DNA of 64,000 nt from assembly GCF_001571385.1 (NCBI RefSeq), contig NZ_BCNW01000001.1, positions 434,001 to 498,000 on the forward strand, in the 5' to 3' direction. Every line of letters begins with the position of its first letter. Position 1 is the stretch's first letter. The position numbers were made by a program, and so were the translations under genes. The notes beneath the pieces were generated by a model that saw nothing but the letters and a program-made list of their open reading frames with translations, had not been told where the DNA came from and did no database searches. Of the stretch, positions 21,611 through 25,076 are shown one piece after another. The stretch comes from Methanofollis ethanolicus (GTDB lineage: Archaea > Halobacteriota > Methanomicrobia > Methanomicrobiales > Methanofollaceae).

Positions 21611-22780
21611 ATGAAAGTTGCATTTGTTATTCCCTGGTATGGGGACATTCCCGGGGGAGCAGAAGCGGCATGCAGGGATACTGCATTGCATCTGGCACGC
21701 GCCGGCATTGAGGTCGATGTTCTCACGACCTGTGTGAAGGAGTTCTTGAGCGACTGGAATACCAATTACTACAGGGAGGGGGTATACCACGAAGACGGGA
21801 TTGTTGTCAGGCGTTTCCCTGTCCGAAAAAGGGACACAAAACGGTTTGATGCGGTAAATTTCAAACTTATCAATAATCGGATAGTGACCCCTGCGGAGGA
21901 AGGCGTGTTTCTTCGCGAGATGATCCACAGTGAAAAATTATATTCGTATGTCGCTGAAAACGGTGAGAACTACGATTTCCTCCTCTTTATTCCCTATATG
22001 TTCGGGACAACTGTTTCCGGATCTCAGATCCACCCTGAAAAATCGATTTTAATTCCCTGCCTTCACGACGAGAGTTATGCGCACATGGGCATATACCGTT
22101 CCATGTTCAGGAATGTTGGGCGAATTATTTATCTTTCCGAGCAGGAGAGACGGATTGCACATCAGATCTATGAAATAACCGGAAAGGAATACACCCTCGG
22201 TACAGGTGTCGATACCGGCATAGAATCGGATCCGCAAAGGTTCCGGGATACGTACGGTATTAAAGACCCATTTATTCTCTATGCCGGGCGGCGGGACGCC
22301 GGGAAGAACGTGGATCAACTGATCTCATTCTTCTGCGACTATAAAGAGAGGCATGGCACCGGTCTTAAACTGATACTTATTGGCAAAGGTGTTAGCCCGG
22401 TTCCGATCGAACACCGGAAAGATATCATCGATCTCGGCTTTGTTCCCGTTCAGGACAAATATGATGCGTATGGGGCCGCGACTCTCTTCTGTCTGCCTTC
22501 GCTTAACGAGAGTTTTTCTCTTGTGATCATGGAAGCCTGGCTCTGTATGGCTCCTGTACTTGTTCATGGAAGATGCACGGTGACACGAAGTCATTGCATT
22601 CGAAGCAATGGTGGTCTGTATTATAATGACTATGATGAATTTGAGGCATGTCTCTCATTTATTCTTCAAAATCCGCACATTTCAGACCTGATGGCCCAGA
22701 ATGGAAAAAAATACGTGATTGAAAATTATGGCTGGAACACGGTCGTGTCTGAATACATACGGTTGTTTTATGAGAGATAA
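21611..22780 (+). CDS. Family 4 glycosyltransferase, paralogue of the gene at 25841
   Basis: 389 residues. MKVAFVIPWYGDIPGGAEAAC opens the GT-B fold; VLTTCVKEFLSDW and VVRRFPVRKRD are shared almost word for word with the enzyme at 25841-27016 (VVTTCAVDYVTW, TVRRFPVDHERD). The donor site is NESFSLVIMEAWLCMAPVLVHG, and IRSNGGLYYNDYDEFEACLSF is again shared with the paralogue. Codon use is more AT-rich than in the genes before it, suggesting a different origin. The gene ended in a TnpB insertion element shortly after its stop; originally the GT at 24021 probably followed directly. Confidence 0.9.
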   Translation: MKVAFVIPWYGDIPGGAEAACRDTALHLARAGIEVDVLTTCVKEFLSDWNTNYYREGVYHEDGIVVRRFPVRKRDTKRFDAVNFKLINNRIVTPAEEGVFLREMIHSEKLYSYVAENGENYDFLLFIPYMFGTTVSGSQIHPEKSILIPCLHDESYAHMGIYRSMFRNVGRIIYLSEQERRIAHQIYEITGKEYTLGTGVDTGIESDPQRFRDTYGIKDPFILYAGRRDAGKNVDQLISFFCDYKERHGTGLKLILIGKGVSPVPIEHRKDIIDLGFVPVQDKYDAYGAATLFCLPSLNESFSLVIMEAWLCMAPVLVHGRCTVTRSHCIRSNGGLYYNDYDEFEACLSFILQNPHISDLMAQNGKKYVIENYGWNTVVSEYIRLFYER

Positions 22781-22782
22781 TG

Positions 22783-24018
22783 TCAACCGCTCCGCGCCTG
22801 TTTGGCCAGGGCTTGTACCTGCACTCTTACGAATGCGCTACATTCGGCTGGTTGACAGACAGCCTGCTCAGGCAAGATATACCCACCTGAGCAATGTTTC
22901 GAGCAGCATTGAGGTCAGCATGGAGTTGAAACCCGCATTTCCGGCACCGGAACGACGAGCCATCCCGATTTCTTTTGCAGGCATGCCCACACACCGAGCA
23001 CTTCTGCGAGGTGTACCGGGCATCGACAAGGACAACCTGCTTTCCCAGAGCCTCGGCCTTGTACCGGAGGAACTGTTCGAGTTCGTAGAACGACCAGGTG
23101 TTCAGTTTTCGGTTGAACCCCGTGCCTCTCCTCTTCTGGACCCGGATCTTCGAGAGGTCTTCCAGTGCGAAGACCGTGTACTCAGAGTTCACAATCTGCT
23201 TCGAGATGCAATGATTTGTATCAGTCACAAACCGTCTTTCCCGTCCGGCCATCCTGCGGAGTTTCCGCTGTGCCGACCGGGTGCCTCCGGACTGCAACTC
23301 CTGACGGAGACGGGCGTACTTCGACCGAACGCACTTCACCTGCCGAGAGTTGAAAAAAGTGTTGTCAGAACAAACAGCAACATTCACGATCCCCCGGTCG
23401 ATCCCGAGCACCTCGACCCGCTGTACCGGCTCTACATTCAGATGCTCCATCGAGATGTGGAGGTAAAACACCTTCTTCCTCCTATCATAGGAGAGCGTCG
23501 AAGAGGTGACAGTCCAGGAGAGGTAATTACGATGATACCCGGAGATTGGGACCGTCGCCTTGATCCGTCCTCGCACCGATGCGATGGTCGCAAGACCATG
23601 CACCAGATTCACCGTGATGACCCGCTGGTTGTACCGCATAGCGGCGAGCGGCTTTCGTTCTGGTATGGTCTTGCACCTGGTGGCTTTCAGTGCCTCACAC
23701 GCGCAGTCTCGCGCACCCTGCACCAGAGAGGACGGGAGATCAGGAACAGACTCACGAACACCCTTGTAGGTCGCCTTGTGGTTCTCCACCTTGTTCCACG
23801 TATGGTTCTCGAACCCCCACTGTGCGGAGACAGAGAACGCGGTGGAATAGGCTCTCATCGTATCGAGGAGAGCAGAGGAGCCGCCATCGGGCAACTGAAG
23901 TTTGAACGTGCTCGTCCTGATCACATGCATATGGGGACCATGGTAGCACAAAACGATATCGGAGGTGAAAAGGGCAATACCTCGCCGCACCTGTTGGCCG
24001 GGGTCTCCCTGCCCATTT
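22783..24018 (-). mobile_element. TnpB-only insertion sequence (IS200/IS605 superfamily, IS1341-like)
   Basis: The element carries tnpB but no tnpA, so it could only have moved with a transposase supplied elsewhere. Ends are approximate. Similar subterminal blocks lie near both ends on the plus strand: CCGCGCCTGTTTGGCCAGGG (about 22795-22814) and CCGCACCTGTTGGCCGGGG (about 23981-23999). Near the right end of tnpB is a hairpin, CGAATG/CATTCG around CGCTA (22830-22846), and a longer inverted repeat TGTCAACC/GGTTGACA (22780-22787 with 22850-22857). No long terminal inverted repeats or target duplications are seen, as expected for this family. It sits between two GT4 genes, in the opposite orientation. 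Confidence 0.7.
22827..23930 (-). CDS. tnpB: TnpB, RNA-guided RuvC-like nuclease of IS605-type elements
   Basis: About 367 residues with everything an active TnpB needs. RuvC-like catalytic acids are Asp178 (LGIDRGIVNVAV), Glu257 (VFALEDLSKI) and Asp339 (LHADLNAARNI), numbering from the ATG at 23930. The zinc ribbon between the last two is CSVCGH...FRCRKCG. A basic helical region (KLRRMAGRERRFV) lies between RuvC motifs I and II. TnpB is the ancestor of Cas12; it cuts DNA next to a short flanking motif, guided by an RNA transcribed from the 3' end of its own gene and the right end. A reading from 24032 would add 34 residues from the element's left end, which I reject. Confidence 0.93.
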   Translation of the reverse strand: MHVIRTSTFKLQLPDGGSSALLDTMRAYSTAFSVSAQWGFENHTWNKVENHKATYKGVRESVPDLPSSLVQGARDCACEALKATRCKTIPERKPLAAMRYNQRVITVNLVHGLATIASVRGRIKATVPISGYHRNYLSWTVTSSTLSYDRRKKVFYLHISMEHLNVEPVQRVEVLGIDRGIVNVAVCSDNTFFNSRQVKCVRSKYARLRQELQSGGTRSAQRKLRRMAGRERRFVTDTNHCISKQIVNSEYTVFALEDLSKIRVQKRRGTGFNRKLNTWSFYELEQFLRYKAEALGKQVVLVDARYTSQKCSVCGHACKRNRDGSSFRCRKCGFQLHADLNAARNIAQVGISCLSRLSVNQPNVAHS

Positions 24019-24020
24019 AG

Positions 24021-25076
24021 ATGAAGATCCACCAGATTTTACCTTCATTTTCTCCCGGGGACGCGATCGGGAATGAAGTGCTGCTGATGCGTGACCTCCT
24101 GCGGAGCTGGGGCTATGAGTCTGAGATTTTTGCTCAGAATATTTCCCCGGCCATGCGGGCCCGCCCCTATCGGGAGTATGAATGGGAATCATCTCCTGAC
24201 AATCTTCTGATATATCATTTTTCGATCGGTTCCGAGGTTTCCGATTTTGTCCGGGGTCTTCCCGATAAAAAAGTACTGATATACCATAATATCACGCCCT
24301 CGCATTTTTTCTGCGGTATAAACGACACCCTCGTCTTTCTGCTGGAAAAGGGACGTGAAGAACTTAAATCGCTCTCCGGGGACTTTGATCTCGCCGTAGC
24401 CGATTCCGAATATAATCGGATCGAGTTAGAGCGGGCAGGATATCATAATACCGGCGTATTGCCACTCATAATCGATTTTTCAAAGTACGGGGCCTGTAAT
24501 CAGGATATTATTGATGCATTTTCCGATGATTGGACGAATATACTTTTTGTAGGGCGTATATCTCCAAACAAAAAACATGATGATCTTCTCCGTATTTTTT
24601 ATTATTACAAGCGTATCAACCCGAAGGCACGGCTGCTCCTGCCGGGGGGGTATGACGGATGTGAGCCTTATCTTCGGCAACTTCAGGATCTGGCCCGGAG
24701 ATTGGGGCTATCTGATATATACTTTCCCGGAAAGGTGCCTTTCAGAGATCTTGTCTCGTATTACATGGCCTCCGATATTTTCCTGTGTATGAGCGAGCAC
24801 GAAGGATTCAACGTCCCGCTGGTGGAAAGCATGTTCTTTGGCCTGCCAATTATTGCCTATCTGTCTTCTGCAATCCCGTACACCCTGGGGGACGCCGGGG
24901 TCCTTGTTCGGTCCAAAAATTATATGGAAATCGCAGAATTGATGAATATCATCCTGGAGGATCCCGGTCTTCGAAATCGGCTGATCGCTCACCAGAGAGA
25001 ACGTTTAAAAGAATTTGAGTATGAGAAGGTGGCGGCGCAGTTCTATGCCATAGTTAAGGGGTTTGAACCGGAATGA
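24021..25076 (+). CDS. Family 4 glycosyltransferase
   Basis: 351 residues, GT-B fold. MKIHQILPSFSPGDAIGNEV resembles enzymes that begin with the 'xGDAIxN' acceptor loop; ILFVGRISPNKKHDDLLRIFYYY, LLLPGGYDGCEPYL and MSEHEGFNVPLVESMFFGLPII form the donor-binding domain. AT-rich codon use matches the GT4 genes on either side. The gene starts within a few bases of the left end of the TnpB element, so its former ribosome-binding site and transcript may have been cut off. A T-rich purine-poor sequence precedes the ATG, and I see no ribosome-binding site. Expression would now depend on a promoter inside the element or a leaderless start. Confidence 0.87.
   Translation: MKIHQILPSFSPGDAIGNEVLLMRDLLRSWGYESEIFAQNISPAMRARPYREYEWESSPDNLLIYHFSIGSEVSDFVRGLPDKKVLIYHNITPSHFFCGINDTLVFLLEKGREELKSLSGDFDLAVADSEYNRIELERAGYHNTGVLPLIIDFSKYGACNQDIIDAFSDDWTNILFVGRISPNKKHDDLLRIFYYYKRINPKARLLLPGGYDGCEPYLRQLQDLARRLGLSDIYFPGKVPFRDLVSYYMASDIFLCMSEHEGFNVPLVESMFFGLPIIAYLSSAIPYTLGDAGVLVRSKNYMEIAELMNIILEDPGLRNRLIAHQRERLKEFEYEKVAAQFYAIVKGFEPE

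What the first reader, a model, noticed from the sequence alone, without database searches (positions are those of the whole stretch)
22783..24018. Intact TnpB nuclease with no TnpA inside a glycosyltransferase operon
All three RuvC acids and the zinc ribbon are intact, while tnpA is absent. Subterminal blocks near both ends and a hairpin at 22830-22846 suggest functional ends and a right-end guide RNA, whose guide would be read from the DNA beyond about 22783. The element lies antisense between two GT4 genes and may reduce expression of the downstream one.
Basis: partly seen in the sequence, partly recalled or inferred. Interest (0 to 1): 0.6.

Follow-up and report, generated by a model that had tools for sequence, protein, structure and literature searches.

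The report
TnpB-only transposon abutting a start codon
This is an ordinary kind of archaeal mobile element, a stand-alone TnpB RNA-guided nuclease with intact ends and its own guide RNA but no transposase, whose target word TTCAT is the mirror image of a gene start (ATGAA), so it repeatedly lands exactly in front of start codons and may supply them with a new ribosome-binding site.

Summary
Window 22782-24020 (minus) is a complete 1,239-bp IS1341-type (TnpB-only, IS200/IS605 group) element in a Methanomicrobiales genome. tnpB (22827-23930, 367 aa) has all RuvC and zinc-ribbon residues. It evolves under purifying selection (dN/dS 0.16 against a second copy in the same genome). No Y1 TnpA was found anywhere in the genome. 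Homologous copies fix the ends as TTCAT|CTAAATGGGCA...GTTGAC|. Relatives carry exact empty sites for two sister insertions, without target duplication. The right end has the anatomy of an omega-RNA, including a loop GTCAAC/terminal GTTGAC pseudoknot like that of ISDra2. Guide: ATTATCTCTCATAAAACAAC.

About one third of 37 related elements lie exactly at an ATG start, against about 8% of all such words (in the window). The left end, read toward that gene, carries an invariant GGAGGTGA and a hairpin that would place it 7-9 nt from the retained ATG. GGAGG-bearing elements sit at starts more often (10/17 vs 3/20, p=0.008). I infer, but have not shown, that the left end is a portable ribosome-binding site. 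The element itself is a new member of a known kind.

The parts
22782..24020 (-). whole TnpB-only element, 1,239 bp
   Evidence: ends fixed by alignment to the second copy in the genome and to homologous copies whose flanks differ
22827..23930 (-). tnpB, 367 aa, start ATG (M[HN]VIRT, conserved), RuvC D/E/D and zinc ribbon intact
   Evidence: full-length fold match to Cas12f and TnpB structures
24021..24025 (-). target pentamer / presumed TAM TTCAT; on the + strand it is ATGAA, the start of the downstream glycosyltransferase
   Evidence: TTCAT precedes the homologous left ends examined
23972..24014 (-). left-end structure: outer stem GGGCA/TGCCC and inner hairpin around CCCCGGCCAACAGGTGCGG (23985-24003)
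   Evidence: outer stem invariant and inner hairpin re-paired with different sequence in related elements; the inner hairpin of this copy has a mismatch
23961..23968 (+). GGAGGTGA, Shine-Dalgarno-like, pointing at the downstream gene; 9 nt from the ATG if the hairpin between is looped out
   Evidence: TCACCTC invariant in 11 of 11 left ends of this subfamily, less conserved sequence follows; role inferred
22866..22892 (-). omega-RNA stem 1 (GCTCAGGTGGG-TATATC-TTGCCTGAGC), inside the tnpB 3' end
   Evidence: 96% of cells paired in 9 copies; different but complementary arms in non-autonomous relative L131
22846..22864 (-). omega-RNA stem 2 GGCTG...CAGCC with loop GTCAAC (22851-22856)
   Evidence: invariant here; the same stem-loop with other arms in distant TTGAC-ended families
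22782..22787 (-). terminal GTTGAC: end of the element and 3' half of the pseudoknot with loop GTCAAC
   Evidence: standard pairs in all 9 copies
22788..22811 (-). right-end subterminal hairpin (GGCCAAACAGGCGCGG and neighbours), eroded in this copy
22762..22781 (-). predicted guide ATTATCTCTCATAAAACAAC, antisense to the 3' end of the upstream glycosyltransferase
   Evidence: position directly after the right end; its only match in the genome (up to 3 mismatches, with the TAM) is this junction, where TTGAC stands in place of TTCAT
21611..22780 (+). upstream GT4-type glycosyltransferase, stop codon 1 nt from the element
   Evidence: PF00534
24021..25076 (+). downstream GT4-type glycosyltransferase, ATG abuts the element
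   Evidence: PF00534

Best explanation
This is a complete IS1341-type element. It moved into the site with help from a Y1 TnpA supplied in trans that the genome no longer carries. TnpA inserted it 3' of TTCAT by single-strand transfer without target duplication (ends and empty sites of sister copies shown; enzyme inferred). The tnpB transcript runs through the right end into the neighbouring gene; its 3' part folds into an omega-RNA closed by the GTCAAC/GTTGAC pseudoknot, and the 20 nt beyond is the guide (anatomy shown; RNA and cleavage inferred). TnpB-omegaRNA would cut TTCAT + guide, that is, the reconstituted empty site on a sister chromosome, so that the element is copied back by repair. 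The occupied site is spared because the right end reads TTGAC. Because TTCAT is the reverse complement of ATGAA, one common non-disruptive site is directly in front of a start codon. There the ATG is kept and the left end becomes the gene's new leader. In this subfamily that leader carries GGAGGTGA plus a hairpin that brings it 7-9 nt from the ATG, which I infer lets the gene still be translated.
For: Two 93%-identical copies in the genome with different flanks. The ends TTCAT|CT... and ...TTGAC| recur in homologous copies. Exact empty sites for the HD-gene and rpiA insertions in many relatives, no duplication. dN/dS 0.11-0.19. Omega-RNA helices paired in 96-100% of cells and pseudoknot pairs kept in all 9 copies. 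The GTCAAC stem-loop recurs in distant TTGAC families; terminal pseudoknot in ISDra2 (PMC10097598). 13 of 37 related elements at true gene starts against 11 of 142 ATGAA words in the window, p=2e-6. GGAGG-bearing ends at starts in 10/17 against 3/20, p=0.008. TCACCTC invariant in 11/11 left ends.
Against: No TnpA in the genome now, and both end hairpins of this copy carry mismatches, so it may be stranded. No expression data. The Shine-Dalgarno association is correlative, rests on a sample biased to a few genera, and could reflect lineage rather than function. TCACCTCC could instead serve tnpB expression or end recognition. The start-site excess partly reflects selection against insertions inside genes. 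The background fraction comes from one 64-kb window with gene starts judged by eye.
Confidence: 0.85

Rival explanations
1. A decaying, immobile IS1341 copy: tnpB is still open only because the insertion is recent, and the element does nothing except break up the glycosyltransferase operon.
For: No TnpA in the genome; mismatches in both subterminal hairpins of this copy.
Against: dN/dS of 0.16 between the two resident copies and 0.11-0.19 across the family; omega-RNA helices and pseudoknot intact.
Confidence: 0.25
2. A domesticated RNA-guided regulator (TldR-like) that uses the antisense guide to repress the neighbouring glycosyltransferase gene.
For: The guide is antisense to the end of the upstream gene.
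Against: All three RuvC residues are intact, unlike TldR (known from the literature); the guide is just whatever flanks the insertion and differs in every copy; the intact site lacks the TTCAT TAM.
Confidence: 0.04
3. The start-codon placement is only a by-product of target choice and purifying selection, and the GGAGGTGA is a coincidental part of the left end (tnpB leader or TnpA recognition).
For: Most TTCAT words lie inside genes, where insertion would be lost; families with other left-end sequence also occur at starts (L138, L144, L225).
Against: Invariance of TCACCTC among divergent copies, its spacing to the ATG once the conserved stem is closed, and its association with start sites.
Confidence: 0.55
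4. An IS607-type element moved by a serine recombinase.
For: TnpB also occurs in IS607 elements.
Against: No recombinase gene in the element; IS607_TnpB model 50 bits against a cut-off of 350; pentanucleotide target and subterminal hairpins of the IS605 kind.
Confidence: 0.02

Closest known systems
IS1341-type (TnpB-only) elements of archaea, e.g. in Natronomonas and Haloquadratum (PMC3119063)
   Same: tnpB without tnpA, near-terminal palindromes, no target duplication, many per genome, non-autonomous (PATE) and about 50-bp terminal-only derivatives
   Different: target TTCAT with recurrent placement at ATG starts and a conserved outward GGAGGTGA in the left end; not mentioned in the passages of that paper read here
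ISDra2 TnpB-omegaRNA (PMC8612924, PMC10097598)
   Same: RuvC/zinc-ribbon TnpB, guide RNA from the right end, TAM equal to the insertion target, pseudoknot between a loop and the terminal nucleotides
   Different: ISDra2 has tnpA and TTGAT; here no tnpA and TTCAT; activity here not tested
IS605-type elements of Halanaerobium with tnpA lost (PMC7290912)
   Same: many copies with intact ends presumed mobilised by TnpA acting in trans; a PATE-like derivative
   Different: there one intact tnpA remains in the genome; here none was found
AsCas12f / Cas12f (8j12, 7wju)
   Same: closest solved relatives by sequence and by predicted fold
   Different: encoded inside a transposon with defined ends; Cas12f2 model 135 bits against a cut-off of 450

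Membership tests
IS1341-type (TnpB-only IS200/IS605) element | tnpB with intact RuvC and zinc ribbon | tested here: met
IS1341-type (TnpB-only IS200/IS605) element | no tnpA in the element | tested here: met
   none in the whole genome either
IS1341-type (TnpB-only IS200/IS605) element | insertion 3' of a fixed tetra- or pentanucleotide without target duplication | tested here: met
   TTCAT at homologous left ends; empty sites of sister copies; not shown for the window's own site
IS1341-type (TnpB-only IS200/IS605) element | subterminal hairpins at both ends | tested here: met
   slightly eroded in this copy
TnpB-omegaRNA (OMEGA) nuclease system | structured guide RNA at the right end, including the pseudoknot | tested here: met
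   sequence and structure only; no Rfam match
TnpB-omegaRNA (OMEGA) nuclease system | RNA-guided cleavage next to a TAM | not testable with these tools
   needs biochemistry
TldR (nuclease-dead TnpB regulators) | loss of RuvC catalytic residues | tested here: not met
   residues present
IS607 | serine recombinase partner | tested here: not met
   no recombinase ORF in the element; model score far below cut-off
Cas12f | score over the family cut-off | tested here: not met
   135 bits against a cut-off of 450 for Cas12f2
Cas12f | association with a CRISPR array | not tested
   no array search was run on the window; the gene lies inside a transposon with defined ends

The most novel reading that the evidence does not exclude
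A family of RNA-guided-nuclease transposons makes its insertions harmless in a specific way. Its target word is the antisense of a start codon, and its left end is a portable, structured ribosome-binding site (GGAGGTGA plus a hairpin that sets the spacing) that re-supplies translation to the gene it displaces from its own leader.
Probability: 0.3. Interest if true: 0.65.

Novelty: new member of a known kind. Interest (0 to 1): 0.42.

Why it matters
TnpB-only elements are abundant in archaea, and how they persist without a transposase, at low cost to the host, is still open. This family gives defined ends, a TAM, an omega-RNA model with a pseudoknot, exact empty sites, and tnpB-free derivatives that keep the guide-RNA part. 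It also gives a simple testable idea for harmlessness: the target word TTCAT is a start codon read backwards, and the left end may replace the lost ribosome-binding site.

Tried and rejected
A plasmid-collection search gave no match. An Rfam scan of the element gave only chance hits. The window's own empty site was sought in 12 congeneric genomes with the joined flanks: no hit outside the genome itself, because the glycosyltransferase pair is absent there. Within the subfamily the omega-RNA helices vary too little for a covariation test (no pair changed on both sides, although 96-100% of cells are paired in helices 1-3; helix 4 was entered one column off and should be disregarded). Support for stem 1 and the pseudoknot comes from comparison between families instead. 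IMG/VR held only a chance match and one 46-bp remnant. A literature search for TTCAT with TnpB and TAM found no paper in the open library.

Full report
What was checked. The window is part of a 2.71-Mb archaeal genome (G000, 3 contigs, 99.7% complete). Relatives named in the results are Methanoculleus and other Methanomicrobiales. G000 is in another family than M. chikugoensis (its contig length identifies G089), so the genus is probably Methanofollis, which is my inference. The element's protein is TnpB: PF07282 and OrfB_IS605 over cut-off, NF040570 guided_TnpB 181 bits. RuvC motifs GIDRG, ALEDLS and HADLNAARN and the CxxC pairs are intact and conserved. A predicted model of moderate confidence (pLDDT 70, pTM 0.46) matches Cas12f and TnpB structures over its whole length, ISDra2 TnpB included.

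Ends. A second copy at C1:1612423-1613667 is 93% identical and lies between unrelated genes. Homologous copies in Methanoculleus and uncultured relatives (L091-L095, L099) and in congeners (L017, L018, L037, L072) share the left end TTCAT|CT..., the right end GTTGAC| (GTTGGC in one), or both where both are held, with unrelated flanks beyond. The element is therefore 22782-24020. For two sister insertions (before an HD-domain gene and before rpiA, both in G098) many relatives carry the uninterrupted sequence across the junction, with no duplication and no loss. The window's own site could not be compared because the glycosyltransferase pair has no match in the genus.

No transposase. Y1 TnpA (PF01797) is absent from G000 but present in 6 of 12 congeners, while G000 has ten TnpB matches over cut-off. 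The TnpA-bearing elements of the genus have right-end hairpins of the same type (CGCCCAACAGG...GTAGTTCAC). Movement by TnpA acting in trans is thus plausible but not shown. In IS605 elements the target is read by a guide tetranucleotide of the element itself (PMC7290912), so one TnpA could serve elements with different targets.

Selection. dN/dS is 0.16 between the two resident copies and 0.11-0.19 across six copies, so the protein has been maintained.

Guide RNA. The last about 110 nt form stem 1 (22866-22892), stem 2 (22846-22864) and the subterminal hairpin. The stem-2 loop GTCAAC is complementary to the terminal GTTGAC. These pseudoknot pairs are standard in all nine copies. The same stem-loop, with different stem arms, recurs in distant TTGAC-ended families. 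The solved ISDra2 omega-RNA has a pseudoknot between upstream nucleotides and the nucleotides just before the guide (PMC10097598). In G004 a 341-bp element without tnpB keeps this RNA with different but complementary arms in stem 1. The guide would be ATTATCTCTCATAAAACAAC. With its TAM it matches the genome only at the element's own junction, where TTGAC replaces TTCAT, as expected of a nuclease that spares the occupied site.

Start codons. TTCAT is ATGAA read on the other strand. Scanning 232 genomes of the order for the left end gave 37 related elements, 36 plus L225. In 13, the flank starts exactly with the ATG of an evident gene: this glycosyltransferase; Mre11-like (twice); HD (twice); RpiA; TrmB-type regulator; DUF2098; a dehydrogenase; two more glycosyltransferases; a weak DUF2238 match (L144); and a P-II-like protein (L225). 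Assignments are, except the P-II-like protein and the L163 HD gene, which I recognised by sequence. In the window about 11 of 142 ATGAA words are gene starts (judged by eye). The binomial p is 2e-6, or 4e-5 with orthologous sites collapsed. Selection against insertion inside genes contributes to this.

Left end as leader. The outer stem GGGCAA/TTGCCC is nearly invariant and the inner hairpin is re-paired with different sequence. On the strand read toward the displaced gene, GGAGGTGA lies just outside the stem in this subfamily. TCACCTC is invariant in 11 of 11 copies, while the sequence that follows is less conserved. With the stem closed, GGAGGTGA is 7 nt (relatives) or 9 nt (window) from the ATG. 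Elements with GGAGG or AGAGG at this place sit at gene starts in 10 of 17 cases, others in 3 of 20 (p=0.008; 0.027 with orthologous sites collapsed). This is an association, not a demonstration. The rpiA and HD cases matter most: the native leader (AAGGAG before rpiA; a TATA-like CTTTATC close to the ATG of the HD gene) is cut off from an intact, conserved gene.

Verdict. The element is a new member of a known kind. The TTCAT = start-codon relation and the possible portable ribosome-binding site are, as far as the held open literature shows, not described, and are cheap to test.

Noticed in passing
L071 / L221 (G002:C1:1420487-1420518): A CRISPR array of about 91 repeats in a congener has a spacer (TTCGTTCCGGTGTCGGAAATGTGGATTTCAACT) matching the zinc-ribbon DNA of this tnpB at 29 of 32 bases, so host CRISPR appears to target the tnpB family.
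   Followed up: partly
L131, L138, L140, L141, L150, L151, L152, L164: 330-341-bp relatives without tnpB keep the left end and an omega-RNA-like right end: PATE-like elements that may borrow TnpB in trans.
   Followed up: partly
L167, L172; L223 (IMG/VR contig): Left-end hairpin fused directly to a right-end-like GTAGTT... terminus, about 45-bp terminal-only remnants; the L223 one abuts the ATG of an ORF starting MNQQEFDLNIGGITPFSTIDFPNHL.
   Followed up: no
L049 (G011) and L131 (G004): A tnpB-bearing and a tnpB-less element sit at the same start codon of an Mre11-like gene in two species: shared ancestral insertion or repeated use of the site.
   Followed up: no
L163 (G014) and L166 (G098): The same HD-domain gene start carries an element (degenerate in G014) in two species of one genus.
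   Followed up: no
L011, L013 (own genome), L079, L080 (G004): A second family with target TTTAT and right end TTCAC shares the CCAACAGGTGCGG hairpin with the window element, including short copies without tnpB.
   Followed up: no
G000 whole genome: Ten TnpB matches over the Pfam cut-off but no Y1 TnpA at all.
   Followed up: partly
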